In this document: positions 120-5,831 of the stretch, one piece after another
Layout of the letters: each line of letters begins with the position of its first letter
How positions within the stretch are numbered: position 1 is the first letter of the stretch
Assembly (NCBI GenBank): GCA_003133425.1
Contig: PKXI01000471.1
Coordinates: 1-5,832, forward strand
Reading direction: 5' to 3'
Source of the DNA: Acidobacteriaceae bacterium
GTDB taxonomy: Bacteria; Acidobacteriota; Terriglobia; Terriglobales; Acidobacteriaceae
DNA: 5,832 nt
Position numbers and translations under genes: made by a program
Notes under the pieces: generated by a model
Told to the model about the DNA's origin: nothing
Database searches by the model: none
What the model saw: the letters and a program-made list of their open reading frames with translations, nothing else

Positions 120-830
120 CTAGCCCCGCATCCACTCCGGCAGTCCCGAGGCAATCGCCGCCCGCACTGCCGCCATCAACTGCTCACGCGTTTCAAAATC
201 GTGCGGGTAAATCGGCGCATGAAAAACAAAGTGTGCCGTCCCCGGCTTGATGGCAAAACTGCCTTTGGCGAGCAGCGCCTCCGTCCCGTAGATTGACACT
301 GGAATGCAAGGTGCGCCGGTCTGCATCGCCAGATAAAACGTGCCTTTCTTGAACGGCAACATGCGGCCGTCCTTCGAACGCGTGCCCTCGACGAACGTCG
401 TAATGTGGACGCCCTTTTCCAGGATCAGCCTGGCCGCGGCTACGCTTTCCTGTGCGTTCGACGGGCTCCCTGTGCGGTCCACGGGAATGAATTCGCCCAG
501 CTTCATGCAGTAGCCGAAGATTGGAAGGTTGAATACAGAGCGCTTGGCGAAGCCGGCTGTGCGTCCTGGGATCCGTGGAATCAGGCCCGGCGGATCAAGG
601 TTCGACACATGGTTGGCCATGAAGATGCAGGCCTGCCCGGCGGGAACATTCTCCCGCCCCTCAACCTGCACACGGATGCGGCCTGCGCGGAAGCCGGTGC
701 GGACGATAAAGCAAGTGACTTCGTAGAGCGGTCCCACGTTGCCCGTTATCATGGCCAGCGGAATGAAGATCACCGCCGAGGGAATGCTTAAAACGAGAAT
801 GACGACAAATACAAAAACCGAAGCGATCAT
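120..830 (-). CDS. plsC: 1-acyl-sn-glycerol-3-phosphate acyltransferase (second, promoter-distal paralogue)
   Basis: A 236-residue PlsC-family membrane acyltransferase. The family transfers an acyl group to the sn-2 position of lysophosphatidic acid to give phosphatidic acid at the inner membrane. Seen in the sequence: a hydrophobic N-terminal segment (about residues 3-28); the catalytic NH-x4-D box NHVSNLDPP with H74 and D79; GEFIPVDR (112-119); FVEGTRS (146-152), the glycerophosphate-binding block; and CIPVSIYG (175-182). The ATG at 828-830 puts the membrane segment at the extreme N-terminus, and the length equals that of its neighbour. Only a weak GGAA-like site precedes it. The protein is colinear without gaps with the upstream paralogue (948-1658), with more than half the residues identical by eye and the same ending IASGLPEWMR. 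The acyl donor and exact lysolipid substrate cannot be read from sequence. The gene is last in the same-strand run. Confidence 0.9.
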   Translation of the reverse strand: MIASVFVFVVILVLSIPSAVIFIPLAMITGNVGPLYEVTCFIVRTGFRAGRIRVQVEGRENVPAGQACIFMANHVSNLDPPGLIPRIPGRTAGFAKRSVFNLPIFGYCMKLGEFIPVDRTGSPSNAQESVAAARLILEKGVHITTFVEGTRSKDGRMLPFKKGTFYLAMQTGAPCIPVSIYGTEALLAKGSFAIKPGTAHFVFHAPIYPHDFETREQLMAAVRAAIASGLPEWMRG

Positions 831-947: not shown

Positions 948-1658
948 CTATGTTCGCATCCACTCCGGCAGTCCGGAAGCGATGGCATTGCGAACCGCCT
1001 GCGTGAGTTCTTCGCGCGTGGCAAAGCTGGCCGGGTCGATGGGCGGATGAAAGACCACATACGCCGGTCCGGGATGCATGCGCAGGCTGCCCTTGCGCAG
1101 AATCTTTTCCGTGCCGTGAATGGAGACCGGGATGCACAGCGCACCCGCGCCAATGGCCAGGAAGAATGGGCCTTTCTTGAAGGGCAACATGCGGCCGTCC
1201 GGCGATCGGGTGCCCTCAACAAAGGTGGTAATGTGGACCCCCTTGGCCAGCACACGCTCGGCCGCGGCCACGCTCTCTTTTGCGGCGGCCGCGCTGCCGC
1301 TGCGGTCCACGGCGATAAACTCGCCCTGCCGGAAGCCGGTGCCGAGGATCGGAAGCTGGATGAGCGAGCGCTTCATGAAGGCTGAGGTGCGGCCGGGAAT
1401 CAGCGAGACCAGCGCGGGCGGGTCGAGATTCGAAACATGGTTCGACATGAAGATGCACGCGCGGTCCCTGGGCACGTTCTCGATGCCAGTAGTTTTAAAG
1501 CGCACGCCGGCCATCCAACAACTGCTGGCGAGCATGAAGCGCGTGCCTCTGTAAAGCGGCATCACGTTGCCCGTCAACCAGCACCAGGGAATGAAAAGGA
1601 GCGCAGTGGGAATCCCGAGGACGACCATCGTTGTAATGAAAATAATTGACGAAAGCAT
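948..1658 (-). CDS. plsC: 1-acyl-sn-glycerol-3-phosphate acyltransferase (first paralogue)
   Basis: A 236-residue PlsC-family acyltransferase, predicted to make phosphatidic acid from lysophosphatidic acid at the inner membrane. Seen: a hydrophobic N-terminus (about residues 3-28); NHVSNLDPP with H74 and D79; GEFIAVDR (112-119); FVEGTRS (146-152); and CIPVSIHG (175-182). I chose the ATG at 1656-1658 because it gives the same length and N-terminal hydrophobic segment as the paralogue at 120-830. The frame stays open to a TTG at 1782-1784, but that extension translates the intergenic hairpin repeat and yields a charged, low-complexity leader, so I reject it. The site before the ATG is weak (AGAAAGA). 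The two plsC genes look like an old tandem duplication. Differences cluster in the N-terminal helix and in residues 37-57, which could reflect different acyl or membrane preferences (inference). Confidence 0.9.
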   Translation of the reverse strand: MLSSIIFITTMVVLGIPTALLFIPWCWLTGNVMPLYRGTRFMLASSCWMAGVRFKTTGIENVPRDRACIFMSNHVSNLDPPALVSLIPGRTSAFMKRSLIQLPILGTGFRQGEFIAVDRSGSAAAAKESVAAAERVLAKGVHITTFVEGTRSPDGRMLPFKKGPFFLAIGAGALCIPVSIHGTEKILRKGSLRMHPGPAYVVFHPPIDPASFATREELTQAVRNAIASGLPEWMRT

Positions 1659-1737
1659 AAGGGTCTTTCTGATCAGCTCGTTTCGAGCTTGCGAATTACA
1701 TTTGAAATAAACCGGGCCGACTTCGCCCTCAACCCCC

Positions 1738-1794
1738 GTGCCCCGTCCTTTCTCCTTTTCTCCGGAGAAAGGGTGGGAGACCAAAACGCTGAAC
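1738..1794. repeat. Intergenic hairpin repeat, copy 2 (between mpl and first plsC)
   Basis: GTGCCCC (1738-1744) is followed by a perfect 9-bp inverted repeat, CCTTTCTCC (1747-1755) and GGAGAAAGG (1764-1772), with an 8-nt loop. Two G-T pairs and an outer CCC/GGG helix (1742-1744 with 1775-1777) extend the stem. The right flank is GGGTGGGAGACC with tail AAAACGCTGAAC. The flanks match the copies at 61-109 and 3269-3326, but the inner stem is a different sequence. Confidence 0.75.
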
Positions 1795-1817: not shown

Positions 1818-3236
1818 TCAAGAATGGAGTTCCCTGAGCCGCGCTGGCAGTTTCTCATAGATGCCGTCGAATCCGCCATTGGAAAGAATCGCCACCACGT
1901 CGCCGGATACGAGCCTCGGCGCGATTCCATTTACGATTGCGTCCGCATCGGGAAGCAGCTCGGCCTTCGCGCCGTCAGCATTGAGCGCATTCACCACGTC
2001 TTCAGGGTGCAGCCGTTCGGCGTCGGGAATGCGTTGCTGCTGATACACGCCTGCAAGCACCACGTGATCGGCCAGCCGTAGGCTTGCCACAAGATCGGCT
2101 TCGAGCACTTTGCGCCGCAGCGTATTCGAACGCGGCTCCAGCACCGCCCACAGCCGCGACTGCGGATATACCGACCGCAGTGCCCGCAGCGTCTCGCGAA
2201 TAGCCGTGGGATGGTGCGCGAAATCTTCGATCACCGTGATGCCGTCGATCTCCGCGCGCACTTCAAGACGCCGCTTCACGCTCTTGAAAGTTTTGAGCGC
2301 CTCGCAAATCGCTTCTTTGCTCAGGCCCTGCCCAGAGGCAAGCGCCGCCGCGGCTGTCGCGTTCAGAGCGTTGTGCTCGCCGGCCATGCGCATCTCGAGC
2401 TCGGCCCACAGCACTCCGCCATGCCACACTTCCCAACGCGTGAGGCCATTCTCATGGCGAAGGTTTTTGAGGCGCCAATCGGCGCTCTCTGAAAAGCCGT
2501 AACGCTCCACGCGGCACAACGCATGACTAATGCACTCCGTTACGTTCTCGCTGCCGTCGAATGCAACAATCAAGCCACGGCGCGGAATCAGGTTCACTAG
2601 CCGTTTGAAGGCTGTCTTCACCGCTTCAAGATCCGCGTAAATATCCGCGTGATCGAATTCCACGTGGGTCAAAATCAGCGCGTCGGGAAAGTAGTGCAGA
2701 AACTTCGGCCCTTTGTCGAAGAAGGCTGTATCGTACTCGTCGCCCTCAAGGATGAAGGTGCGTGTGGGCCGCAGTTGAAAGCTCGATCCAAAGTTCTCCG
2801 CCACGCCGCCGATCAGAAACGAAGGCTCCAGCGCCGGTGTCTCGCGCGAGGCAACCTGATAGATCCACGCCAGCATGCTGGTCGTTGTGGTTTTGCCGTG
2901 TGTCCCGGCTACCACTAGCGACTCGCGGCCTATGAGAAATTCTTCGCGCAGCAGCGCGGCCATTGACGTGAATGGAATGCGCTCGTCCAGCACCCGCTCT
3001 ATTTCGGGATTGCCGCGCGAAAGCGCGTTGCCGATTACCACCAGATCCGGCTTTGAATCGAGATTCGCTTCGGCGTAAGGCTCCAGCACCGGAATCCCCA
3101 GCCCGCGCAGCAGGTCGCTCATGGGCGGATAGGCCGCCTTGTCGGAGCCCGTTATGCGGTGACCCTCCAACTGCAGCAGCCCGGCCAGCGACGCCATCGC
3201 AGTTCCGCAAATCCCACTTAGATGAATGTGTCGCAT
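1818..3236 (-). CDS. mpl: UDP-N-acetylmuramate:L-alanyl-gamma-D-glutamyl-meso-diaminopimelate ligase (murein tripeptide recycling)
   Basis: A cytoplasmic Mur-ligase-family enzyme of 472 residues from the preferred start. It joins recycled L-Ala-gamma-D-Glu-mDAP tripeptide to UDP-MurNAc using ATP, returning it to peptidoglycan synthesis. Domains in order: an N-terminal UDP-binding Rossmann part (MRHIHLSGICGTAMASL, residues 1-17; TGSDKAAYPPMS, 29-40); the central ATPase with P-loop GTHGKTTTT (111-119), EGDEYDT (164-170) and HVEFDHAD (191-198); and a C-terminal ligase domain with EDFAHHPTAI (337-346) and EPRSNT (367-372). FAHHP and EPRSNT are the Mpl forms; MurC typically has YGHHP there. I prefer the ATG at 3234-3236 because the family begins MRIHILGICGT-like, and AGAGGAG lies 12 nt upstream. 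An ATG eight codons upstream (3258-3260) would add MLEEQDLG. The gene follows ldcA, whose tripeptide product is Mpl's substrate. Confidence 0.95.
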   Translation of the reverse strand: MRHIHLSGICGTAMASLAGLLQLEGHRITGSDKAAYPPMSDLLRGLGIPVLEPYAEANLDSKPDLVVIGNALSRGNPEIERVLDERIPFTSMAALLREEFLIGRESLVVAGTHGKTTTTSMLAWIYQVASRETPALEPSFLIGGVAENFGSSFQLRPTRTFILEGDEYDTAFFDKGPKFLHYFPDALILTHVEFDHADIYADLEAVKTAFKRLVNLIPRRGLIVAFDGSENVTECISHALCRVERYGFSESADWRLKNLRHENGLTRWEVWHGGVLWAELEMRMAGEHNALNATAAAALASGQGLSKEAICEALKTFKSVKRRLEVRAEIDGITVIEDFAHHPTAIRETLRALRSVYPQSRLWAVLEPRSNTLRRKVLEADLVASLRLADHVVLAGVYQQQRIPDAERLHPEDVVNALNADGAKAELLPDADAIVNGIAPRLVSGDVVAILSNGGFDGIYEKLPARLRELHS

Positions 3237-3248
3237 CCCCAGGTCTTG

Positions 3249-3255
3249 CTCCTCT
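3249..3255 (-). promoter_or_regulatory. Shine-Dalgarno site AGAGGAG for mpl
   Basis: AGAGGAG on the minus strand ends 12 nt before the ATG at 3234-3236, a rather long but usable spacing. It lies inside the extra eight codons that a start at 3260 would add. This fits the downstream start and agrees with the family's N-terminal alignment. Confidence 0.45.
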
Positions 3256-3268
3256 AGCATCTAACTGC

Positions 3269-3352: not shown

Positions 3353-4306
3353 CTATTCGCTGTTTTTTCCCACCGCCGGTTCAAGCAAACGCAATTGCGT
3401 CTCATCGCCGACTTTCAAATCTGCCTGAACGCCGAAAGTCAGCGTCACATTCTGACGCGACGCATGGCCGCTGCGCAGACCGATTGCGATCGGTCCATCG
3501 AAGTTGGCGAGCGCGCTCAAAATGGCTTGATCCAGCATTTCCGGCGCAGCGCCCGGTGAAACGCAATCAACCATCTCTCCAAAAACAATGCCGCGTACTC
3601 CCGCCAGCTTGCCGGCAACGCGCAGTTGCCACAGCATGCGATCCACCTGGTAGGGCTTGGCGCCAATGTCTTCAATAAACAGCAGCGTGCCCTCGGTGGC
3701 CGGCTCCCAGTCTGTGCCCAGCAGCGAAACCAGAATGCTGAGGCAGCCGCCATAGAGAACGCCGCCTGCCGAGCCCGGCTTCAATGCGCGCAACCCCTCG
3801 GCCGCGCCCACGCTGTATGGCTCGCCTTCAAGCGCTGCCTGAAAACTGGGCAGATGCACGCCGTCTTCAAGATAAAAATCCGCAGCCGCCATCGGCCCAT
3901 GAAACGCGGGCAAACCAAGTTCGTCCAGCAGTCGCAGTTGCACGCCGGTCAGGTCGCTGTATGCAAAAAATGGCTTGGGATGCTCACGGATCAGCTTCAT
4001 ATCCAATCCGCCGAGCAGGTAATTGGAGCCATAGCCGCCGCGCATGCACATCACCGCGCTTGTCGCTTCATCCGCAAAAGCCGCATTCAAATCGGCCAGG
4101 CGCTGCTGAGGCGTTCCCGCAAAATAGAGCGGCCCGCGTTCGAGTGCAGATGCGCCAAGGCGAGGCTCAAGACCAATGCCGCGCAGCGCCGCCAGTCCGC
4201 GCTGCACACGCTCGGGCTGCGCAAATGAAGCCGGCGCAATCACGCTCACACCAGCGCCCGATCGGACGGCCGGAGGACTCAACAAGCGTGTAGTGCGGTC
4301 AGTCAT
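3353..4306 (-). CDS. ldcA: Muramoyltetrapeptide LD-carboxypeptidase (peptidase family S66)
   Basis: A 317-residue S66-family serine peptidase. LdcA removes the terminal D-Ala from the murein tetrapeptide L-Ala-gamma-D-Glu-mDAP-D-Ala in the cytoplasm, leaving the tripeptide that Mpl reuses. Seen: an N-terminal domain with RGGYGSNYLL (89-98); the nucleophile elbow AYSDLT with S117; FHGPM (135-139); the C-terminal domain with LFIEDIGAKPYQVDRML (209-225), including the catalytic glutamate E212; and GLRSGHASRQ with H281. The Ser-Glu-His triad of the family is therefore complete. There is no signal peptide, in keeping with a cytosolic enzyme. The ATG at 4304-4306 lies 2 nt after the dapF stop (TAA-AG-ATG), which suggests translational coupling; a GAGG lies about 10 nt upstream. 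The S66 family also includes the microcin-resistance protein MccF, but the adjacent mpl and dapF make murein recycling the better reading. Confidence 0.92.
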   Translation of the reverse strand: MTDRTTRLLSPPAVRSGAGVSVIAPASFAQPERVQRGLAALRGIGLEPRLGASALERGPLYFAGTPQQRLADLNAAFADEATSAVMCMRGGYGSNYLLGGLDMKLIREHPKPFFAYSDLTGVQLRLLDELGLPAFHGPMAAADFYLEDGVHLPSFQAALEGEPYSVGAAEGLRALKPGSAGGVLYGGCLSILVSLLGTDWEPATEGTLLFIEDIGAKPYQVDRMLWQLRVAGKLAGVRGIVFGEMVDCVSPGAAPEMLDQAILSALANFDGPIAIGLRSGHASRQNVTLTFGVQADLKVGDETQLRLLEPAVGKNSE

Positions 4307-4308
4307 CT

Positions 4309-5127
4309 TTAGAAAGCCTCACCGCGCGCAATCAGAGCCGCCGGTCCGGTCAGCCATAACTCAGTCCTCGGCCCTCCCCAGACTACGGTCTGTGCTCCGC
4401 CGGGAGCCGCAACATAAAGCGGTGAAACGCAGCCGCTCATCGCAATCGCCGCCGTGGCCGCAGCTGAGCTGCCTGTACCGGACGATGTGGTCGGCCCCAC
4501 GCCGCGCTCGAAGATGCGAATTTCGATCTCGTACTTGTTCACGATCCGCACAAATTCCACGTTGGTCTGCTTTGGAAAATCGGGATGCGCGCAAATCTCC
4601 GCGCCAATCTCGTGCCACGATGTGTCGTTATCATCAAACGCATCGATATCCAGCACGATCACGAAGTGCGGATTGCCGGTCGAAACCTCGACGCCGGCAA
4701 TCTCCATGCCGCCCGCCAGCTTTACCGTTCGTGGAGCAAAAGATGGAACGCCCATCCCGGCCGTCACCTCCACCGTGAATCCAACGTCCGTTTTTACCCC
4801 GTTCACGTGGCACACGCGCACGCCGGCATCGGTCGTGATCTCTACCTCGTTACCCGGCTGCAAGCCGCGTTCGCACGCCATCCACGCAGCCACGCAGCGC
4901 GTTCCGTTCCCGCTGATCTCGGCCACCGACCCGTCTGCATTGTGCAGGCGAATGCGGCCCGATTTTGGGCCGGTCCACTCAAAAAACTCCACACCGTCAG
5001 CGCCCACGCCGGTATTGCGCGCGCAAAGCCGCCGCGTCAAATCAGCCCAATTGGCGCCGTGCGCCGCCTCTTCCGTCACAATAAGAAAATCGTTACCGCA
5101 GGCATGTGCTTTCGTAAAGGGGATCAA
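4309..5127 (-). CDS. dapF: Diaminopimelate epimerase family protein with serine at both catalytic cysteine positions
   Basis: A 272-residue cytoplasmic protein with the DapF two-lobed fold. DapF converts LL- to meso-diaminopimelate, the step before lysine and the source of the mDAP in peptidoglycan. Substrate-binding motifs are intact: CGNDF (10-14), GADGV (42-46), NADGS (63-67), GNPH (151-154), TNVEFV (188-193), FERGVG (206-211) and GTG (217-219). In known DapF the two acid-base residues are cysteines in CGNG and ACGTG. Here they are S72 (codon AGC, 4912-4914) and S216 (codon TCC, 4480-4482), giving ISGNGTRC and SSGTG. The start is TTG (5125-5127) with GGAGGA 3 nt upstream; no in-frame alternative matches the family's beginning. 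Its nearest neighbour ldcA acts on mDAP peptides. It may be a functional lineage variant or a related isomerase. Family membership is firm; epimerase activity is less certain. Confidence 0.85.
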   Translation of the reverse strand: MIPFTKAHACGNDFLIVTEEAAHGANWADLTRRLCARNTGVGADGVEFFEWTGPKSGRIRLHNADGSVAEISGNGTRCVAAWMACERGLQPGNEVEITTDAGVRVCHVNGVKTDVGFTVEVTAGMGVPSFAPRTVKLAGGMEIAGVEVSTGNPHFVIVLDIDAFDDNDTSWHEIGAEICAHPDFPKQTNVEFVRIVNKYEIEIRIFERGVGPTTSSGTGSSAAATAAIAMSGCVSPLYVAAPGGAQTVVWGGPRTELWLTGPAALIARGEAF

Positions 5128-5267: not shown

Positions 5268-5831
5268 TCACCGCGAATCCCGGCTCGTTCCGATTTGCGG
5301 CACCGGCCCGCTCCCAGGACTTTCGGCAACGTAGAGTGTTCCCGAAGGTTGCCCGTTGGCCGCGAACCGTCGAACCGCCCTCAGCCCCCCGGGATGCGCC
5401 TTCACCGCGCGGTCCACCGCATCGCCGTCGAACGCCAGCACGATCGCCGCATGGGCAGCGGGAGCCTTCAGCGCCGTGTCCCAAATCTCCAGGTCAGCCT
5501 CGTTGATCGTCTGCCGCAACGGAATCCCAGTGAGCGCCACAATCTCCGGATCGACCGAGGTCTCCATCAGAATTGCAGCGCCGGGCCGCTGGTCCAGCAG
5601 CCCGCGCAGCACCGGCGGAATTGCCACCTGGTAAGGCCGATGCGCGGCCATATTCTTTGTGCCTTCCACGTAAACCAGCGGCCCTTCTCGCACCACTTTC
5701 CAGGCATTCAGAGCCACCAGCGCGACCAGCACTCCCACAGCGTACTTCGCCAACTGCGGCTTGAACTCCCTCACCGCGCCGATAGAAAAGTTTGCGACAA
5801 AACCTAGGCCCAGCGCCAGCGCCGGCAGCAG
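5268..5831 (-). CDS. C-terminal part of a membrane protein, possibly a GT39-like glycosyltransferase (5' end outside window)
   Basis: The frame is open to the window edge, so this is the last 187 residues of a longer protein ending in TGA (5268-5270). The visible part starts with a hydrophobic stretch (LLPALALGLGFVANF), a short charged link (REFKPQ), and a second membrane segment (YAVGVLVALVALNAW). A soluble tail of about 140 residues follows, with no catalytic motif I recognise. Two membrane helices followed by a tail containing a VLRGLLDQRP-like region and a GIPLRQTINEAD-like region recall the C-terminal ends of acidobacterial GT39/ArnT-like multi-span glycosyltransferases. This is recall, not a search. 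The GTG at 5772-5774 is an internal valine codon rather than the start, because hydrophobic in-frame sequence continues upstream of it. Whether it shares a transcript with dapF (140 nt away) is unclear. Confidence 0.6.
   Translation of the reverse strand: MLPALALGLGFVANFSIGAVREFKPQLAKYAVGVLVALVALNAWKVVREGPLVYVEGTKNMAAHRPYQVAIPPVLRGLLDQRPGAAILMETSVDPEIVALTGIPLRQTINEADLEIWDTALKAPAAHAAIVLAFDGDAVDRAVKAHPGGLRAVRRFAANGQPSGTLYVAESPGSGPVPQIGTSRDSR

What the first reader, a model, noticed from the sequence alone, without database searches (positions are those of the whole stretch)
4480..4914. DapF-family protein with both catalytic cysteines replaced by serine
In characterised DapF (for example Haemophilus influenzae C73/C217), two cysteines act as the acid-base pair, one on each face of the substrate alpha carbon. 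Here the aligned residues are S72 (AGC) and S216 (TCC), while all neighbouring ligand-binding motifs are conserved. Each serine is one base change from TGC. As I recall, C73S and C217S mutants of the H. influenzae enzyme lose epimerisation but still eliminate HF from fluoro-DAP analogues. An intact gene with a strong ribosome site, coupled to ldcA, argues against decay. Possibilities: a serine-based epimerase, use of another residue (C78 lies near S72 in the primary sequence), a different reaction on a DAP-like substrate, or an mDAP-binding protein with a second true DapF elsewhere. My recollection is that related acidobacterial proteins also show ISGNGTRC and SSGTG, which would make this a lineage trait rather than a mutation.
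Basis: partly seen in the sequence, partly recalled or inferred. Interest (0 to 1): 0.7.

Follow-up and report, generated by a model that had tools for sequence, protein, structure and literature searches.

The report
Diaminopimelate epimerases with two serines
A gene for the enzyme that makes a key cell-wall building block and lysine precursor has serine in place of both textbook catalytic cysteines, and related bacteria of several groups carry this form as their only recognisable copy, which suggests that the accepted two-cysteine chemistry is not the only way to do the reaction.

Summary
It is not a mutation. In an even sample of 149 acidobacterial genomes, 139 have a DapF-like gene: 75 Ser/Ser only, 57 Cys/Cys only, 4 Cys/Ser, 3 both. 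A second Ser/Ser family (120 of 120 best homologues) includes Marinimicrobia, Anaerolineae and Desulfobacteraceae. A small third Ser/Ser clade lies among Cys enzymes; one origin is rejected in one data set (AU p 0.017), not in another (0.42). The DAP-contacting residues are kept, close pairs show purifying selection, and the predicted structure is DapF with both serines capping the two catalytic helices. No other cysteine explains it (C78 is absent in the second family). Ddh is found in none of the Ser/Ser genomes of the sample, and 49 of the 75 have LysA over cut-off, so they should need LL- to meso-DAP conversion. Best reading: a working DAP epimerase using a serine pair, although published Cys-to-Ser mutants of relatives are almost dead. 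Activity is untested. New variant of a known kind.

The parts
4309..5127 (-). dapF homologue, 272 aa, Ser/Ser variant of diaminopimelate epimerase
4912..4914 (-). codon AGC, Ser72, in place of catalytic Cys73 (E. coli numbering)
4480..4482 (-). codon TCC, Ser216, in place of catalytic Cys217
   Evidence: not Cys in 120 of 120 cross-phylum Ser/Ser homologues; codon read
3353..4306 (-). ldcA, LD-carboxypeptidase (Peptidase_S66), 2 bases behind dapF
   Evidence: PF02016/PF17676; a homologue lies near dapF in 22 of 90 Ser/Ser loci compared
1818..3260 (-). mpl, UDP-MurNAc:tripeptide (meso-DAP) ligase
   Evidence: TIGR01081 419.9 bits over cut-off 388.7; a homologue in 20 of 90 Ser/Ser loci compared

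Best explanation
This is a working LL-DAP/meso-DAP epimerase of the DapF fold in which a serine pair, not a cysteine pair, does the two-base proton transfer. LL-DAP binds between the two domains through the conserved DapF contacts. Domain closure desolvates the site, and Ser72 and Ser216, each at the N-terminus of a central helix on opposite faces of the substrate alpha carbon, act as base (alkoxide-like, stabilised by helix dipole and backbone NH groups) and acid. Shown here: the residues, their conservation, the retained ligand set, the predicted helix-capping positions, the absence of another DapF or of Ddh in most sampled carrier genomes, and the presence in many of enzymes that use meso-DAP. 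Inferred: that it epimerises DAP, that the serines themselves carry the proton, and how they are activated. A possible advantage, inferred only, is freedom from the disulfide switch reported for a cysteine DapF.
Against: No activity has been measured. Cys-to-Ser changes almost abolish activity in relatives: PddB under 0.1%, and that paper says the same of M. tuberculosis DapF (PMC8225329, passages); HisR greatly reduced (PMC11602996, passages). [quoted passage not shown] No residue that would activate the serines, shared by the Ser/Ser enzymes and absent from the others, was found. 21 of 75 Ser/Ser-only genomes show no LysA or only partial hits. In Neomarinimicrobiota LysA is over cut-off in 0 of 5 Ser/Ser genomes (233-276 bits, cut-off 297.9) but in 5 of 5 Cys/Cys genomes. 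15 of the 17 named relatives are titled MAG and the completeness of the sampled genomes is not told, so a missing second DapF can be incompleteness.
Confidence: 0.62

Rival explanations
1. It is a working DAP epimerase, but the serines are not the acid/base pair: a bound water or a conserved His/Glu (H154, E207) moves the proton and the serines only orient it.
For: E207 is invariant in the groups compared. H154 is invariant in the cross-phylum family, 120 of 120. No strong activator of the serines was found.
Against: H154 is His in only 49 of 78 rows of the main clade and Phe in 7 of 7 rows of the small clade. The strict retention of Ser, not Ala or Gly, at both sites argues for a chemical role.
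Confidence: 0.17
2. It is a paralogue with another reaction or only a DAP-binding role, and meso-DAP is made by an unknown non-homologous epimerase.
For: Cys-to-Ser mutants of relatives are nearly inactive. Three sampled genomes carry a Ser/Ser gene and also a Cys/Cys DapF-like gene at another place. DapF-fold relatives do act on other amino acids (HisR, O-ureidoserine racemase). LysA is weaker or missing in part of the Ser/Ser genomes.
Against: 75 of 78 Ser/Ser genomes show no other DapF-like gene, and in the other three the Cys/Cys gene is the one below the DapF cut-off (63.5-72.1 bits) while the Ser/Ser copy is far above it (205.6-232.6 bits). The DAP ligand set is kept. The window gene is linked to ldcA and mpl.
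Confidence: 0.15
3. Another cysteine (C78, C10, C106, or C155 in some relatives) has taken over as base.
For: C78 is near S72 in sequence and kept in 120 of the 120 best homologues; C10 in 119 and C106 in 120. A Cys at position 155, beside H154, is in 35 of 51 Ser/Ser representatives (15 of 15 of the cross-phylum family) and in 1 of 35 Cys/Cys ones.
Against: C78 is Ile in 115 and Ala or Ser in 5 of 120 of the cross-phylum family. C10 and C106 are not kept in L009-L014. Position 155 is Phe in the window and holds no Cys in 4 of 4 small-clade rows; the E. coli enzyme, which has its Cys pair, also has Cys there (sequence). The only cysteine nearly common to the Ser/Ser rows, C35 (50 of 51), is as common in Cys/Cys rows (33 of 35).
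Confidence: 0.03
4. The gene is decaying, or the serines are sequencing or assembly errors.
For: The window alone could not exclude it.
Against: 341 of the 360 homologues listed in three searches have the same two serines; intact frames and low dN/dS in related genes.
Confidence: 0.01

Closest known systems
Diaminopimelate epimerase DapF (TIGR00652; H. influenzae 1GQZ, E. coli 4IJZ, A. thaliana 3EJX, cyanobacterial 9MRO)
   Different: Both catalytic cysteines are serine; here this is a natural, conserved state.
4-hydroxyproline 2-epimerase with Ser93 facing a Cys (B9JQV3, Cys236, in the figure legend; the text gives B9K4G4 and Cys255) and a dehydratase with Ser90/Thr256 (PMC4113996, passages)
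   Same: Same fold class; a serine in place of the first catalytic Cys in an active epimerase.
   Different: Only one face is Ser in the epimerase, the substrate is a proline, and the protein is a distant homologue.
DapF-like racemases with other substrates: HisR, CntK, O-ureidoserine racemase, PddB
   Same: Same fold for the first three and a cofactor-free two-base scheme for HisR and PddB.
   Different: HisR and PddB use a cysteine pair, and their Cys-to-Ser mutants lose most activity.
C73S and C217S mutants of H. influenzae DapF (2Q9H, 2Q9J)
   Different: Single artificial changes; the natural proteins have both.

Membership tests
DapF, diaminopimelate epimerase (TIGR00652) | Score over the curated family cut-off over the full length | tested here: met
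   181.4 bits against 114.65, residues 3-271
DapF, diaminopimelate epimerase (TIGR00652) | DapF fold, two alpha/beta domains with the active site between them | tested here: met
DapF, diaminopimelate epimerase (TIGR00652) | Residues that contact DAP | tested here: met
   matched to E. coli DapF; eleven positions invariant in 78 of 78 rows (divergent rows left out); which residues contact DAP is recalled from the H. influenzae enzyme
DapF, diaminopimelate epimerase (TIGR00652) | Two catalytic cysteines (C73, C217) | tested here: not met
   Ser at both
DapF, diaminopimelate epimerase (TIGR00652) | LL-DAP to meso-DAP epimerase activity | not testable with these tools
   no assay; only genomic need inferred
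DapF, diaminopimelate epimerase (TIGR00652) | Sole DAP epimerase of its genome | tested here: inconclusive
   no genome is held for the window; in relatives 14 of 14 genomes have one place over the Pfam cut-off and 75 of 78 only the Ser/Ser gene, but completeness is not told
Proline racemase superfamily, Ser/Cys 4-hydroxyproline epimerase | Sequence kinship to the proline racemases | tested here: not met
   NCBIfam and Pfam list DapF models only at E up to 0.001; 12-16% identity to proline racemase and hydroxyproline epimerase chains in structural alignment

The most novel reading that the evidence does not exclude
The two-thiol chemistry of cofactor-free amino acid epimerases is not obligatory: a serine pair has replaced both cysteines in DapF, perhaps more than once (AU p 0.017 against one origin in one of two data sets), and serves as the only DAP epimerase for lysine and cell wall in several phyla, perhaps giving an enzyme that oxidation and thiol reagents cannot switch off.
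Probability: 0.5. Interest if true: 0.82.

Novelty: new variant of a known kind. Interest (0 to 1): 0.7.

Why it matters
DapF is a textbook enzyme and a proposed antibacterial target, and the cysteine thiolate is given as the reason a weak base can take a proton of pKa about 29. A natural serine/serine version that carries essential metabolism would show that the fold and desolvation do most of the work, or that serine can be activated in a way not yet described. It would also mean that thiol-directed DapF inhibitors miss whole lineages, and that annotation by family score gives the name diaminopimelate epimerase to many proteins whose chemistry has not been shown. It can be tested with one purified protein and an E. 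coli dapF mutant.

Tried and rejected
A second Cys/Cys DapF as the true enzyme: not seen in most relatives. The extra sub-cut-off PF01678 hits of G004 and G006 were not recognised by the DapF profile made here.

Bypass by meso-DAP dehydrogenase: Ddh over cut-off in 1 of 149 genomes, a Cys/Cys one, and in 0 of 10 Neomarinimicrobiota genomes; short weak hits were not counted.

C78 or another cysteine as base: contradicted as a general answer.

Two independent origins as a firm claim: on 159 rows one Ser/Ser clade is not rejected (p 0.417); on 89 rows that I chose, with other phyla, it is (p 0.0165), while the main acidobacterial and the cross-phylum groups may be one clade (p 0.535). E. coli was the only classical enterobacterial-type DapF in that set. 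I give it as possible to likely, not shown.

Codon argument: Ser72 shows 5 changes between TCN and AGY codons on the tree and Ser216 one, against 16 and 4 for two control serine columns; the switch is not unusual and I do not lean on it.

LL-DAP aminotransferase model TIGR03542: over cut-off in 4 of 149 genomes; the many weaker hits were taken as general aminotransferases and not used. Ten flanking ORFs of seven other Ser/Ser loci were housekeeping genes, weak matches or unassigned, so the ldcA-mpl linkage looks like an Acidobacteriaceae feature.

Not counted: loci L018-L077, which are duplicates or the 30 best Pfam scores only, were read by a simple motif search and left out of the counts. 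One search found PF01678 in 376 of 396 genomes of the phylum without telling the two residues.

Literature: six searches for natural Ser DapF listed no paper whose title, abstract start or read passages report it; the library holds open-access papers only and most listed papers were not opened. Three searches on acidobacterial cell walls were seen as listings only, so whether DAP has been measured in a Ser/Ser species is open. Read in passages found by terms: PMC8142540, PMC12039745, PMC11602996, PMC4113996, PMC8225329, PMC5296763, PMC6254735.

Full report
What is there. The window is probably a piece of an Acidobacteriaceae chromosome (inference; named homologues include Terracidiphilus sp.). 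The gene at 4309-5127 (-) encodes 272 aa and scores 181.4 bits against TIGR00652 DapF, cut-off 114.65. The codons are AGC at 4912-4914 and TCC at 4480-4482 on the minus strand. Aligned with E. coli K-12 DapF the two serines fall on Cys73 and Cys217, and the other active-site residues match.

How general it is. Of the 120 best homologues 119 are Ser/Ser and one Arg/Ser. The one scan of genome contigs gave 17 loci: 14 Ser/Ser (L001-L014) and 3 Neomarinimicrobiota, Cys/Cys. Each of the 14 Ser/Ser genomes has one place over the Pfam cut-off. I then took an even sample of the phylum: 149 genomes, 139 with a DapF-like gene. I read 141 genes fetched for it (77 Ser/Ser, 60 Cys/Cys, 4 Cys/Ser, no Ser/Cys) and the gene of G001, already in hand (Ser/Ser), 142 in all. 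By genome: 75 Ser/Ser only, 57 Cys/Cys only, 4 Cys/Ser, 3 with both. The table was cut at its foot, so further sub-cut-off fragments may have gone unseen. All 78 Ser/Ser genes are over the DapF cut-off, and the best-scoring gene of the sample (250.8 bits) is Ser/Ser; the listed genes under the cut-off are all Cys/Cys.

Other phyla. As a control I read the 30 best of 47 over-cut-off DapF genes in 61 Neomarinimicrobiota genomes: 25 Cys/Cys and, unexpectedly, 5 Ser/Ser with the motifs KSGNGLRIF and ASGSS. The 120 best homologues of one of these are all Ser/Ser; the 8 names that I could tie to a group are Marinimicrobia, Caldilineaceae, Anaerolineae/Anaerolineales, Desulfobacteraceae and Deltaproteobacteria. 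The Ser/Ser copies of the three acidobacterial genomes with two genes group with this family. The five Neomarinimicrobiota genomes show one DapF each (G416, G422, G428, G454, G462) and no Ddh over cut-off. Their best LysA hits are near full length but below the cut-off (233-276 bits against 297.9), whereas 5 of 5 Cys/Cys genomes compared are above it.

Origins. On a tree without the two trait columns, Ser/Ser falls in one large clade of 85 rows and a small one of 7; in a set of 89 chosen rows the small one lies inside a 41-row group that is otherwise Cys/Cys or Cys/Ser (support 99). The 120 best homologues of the small clade are 102 Ser/Ser, 12 Cys/Cys (among the lowest-scoring) and 6 fragments. 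One origin is not rejected on the 159-row set (p 0.417) but is on the 89-row set (p 0.0165); the main clade and the cross-phylum family may be one (p 0.535). More than one origin is therefore possible to likely, and depends on sampling.

Why it is surprising. Published Cys-to-Ser mutants of relatives are nearly inactive (passages of PMC8225329; PMC11602996), the change is used as a crystallisation trick (PMC12039745), and a review explains why Cys beats Ser as base (PMC8142540). Against that, one epimerase of the same fold works with Ser on one face (PMC4113996). No cysteine is shared by the Ser/Ser enzymes except C35, which Cys/Cys enzymes have too; a Cys at 155 is common in two of the three Ser/Ser groups, but not in the window or the small clade, and E. 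coli has it as well. No activating residue peculiar to the Ser/Ser enzymes was found; positions enriched in them are G40, E70, G126, N152 and G211, and N152 at least is the classical state, also in E. coli. One idea, inferred only, is that losing the thiols removes the disulfide switch seen in C. glutamicum DapF (PMC5296763, passages).

Verdict. Observation confirmed. The protein is a Ser/Ser variant of DapF, not a canonical member, since the cysteine pair was tested and not met. The best reading is a working DAP epimerase with a serine pair (0.62). No report of natural Ser/Ser DapF was met in six searches of an open-access library; automatic database cautions on missing cysteines may exist (recalled) and were not checked.

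Noticed in passing
L102, L149, L152, L189: Four acidobacterial DapF genes have Cys at the first and Ser at the second catalytic site, a possible intermediate state; no Ser/Cys gene was among the 141.
   Followed up: partly
L207-L216, L218: Divergent Cys/Cys DapF-like genes (FCSNG[ST]RAA, mostly CCGTG) below the DapF cut-off; in 8 genomes they are the only DapF-like gene found and in 3 they accompany a Ser/Ser copy.
   Followed up: partly
L199, L203, L204, L205: A long-branch Ser/Ser group (SGNGM, SSTG) that has also lost R77, C78 and G217; its four genomes are in the class without LysA or with partial hits, so it may have another role.
   Followed up: no
L013 (DYJN01000025.1): Record titled Arcobacter sp. 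carries a DapF that groups with Bryobacteraceae; the bin is probably misnamed.
   Followed up: no
window 120-830 and 948-1784 (-): Two tandem PlsC-type acyltransferase genes behind mpl; also two in L002 and L003.
   Followed up: no
window 5268-5831 (-): Partial ORF upstream of dapF without family match at E 0.001, whose longer homologue keeps this place in loci L001-L008.
   Followed up: no
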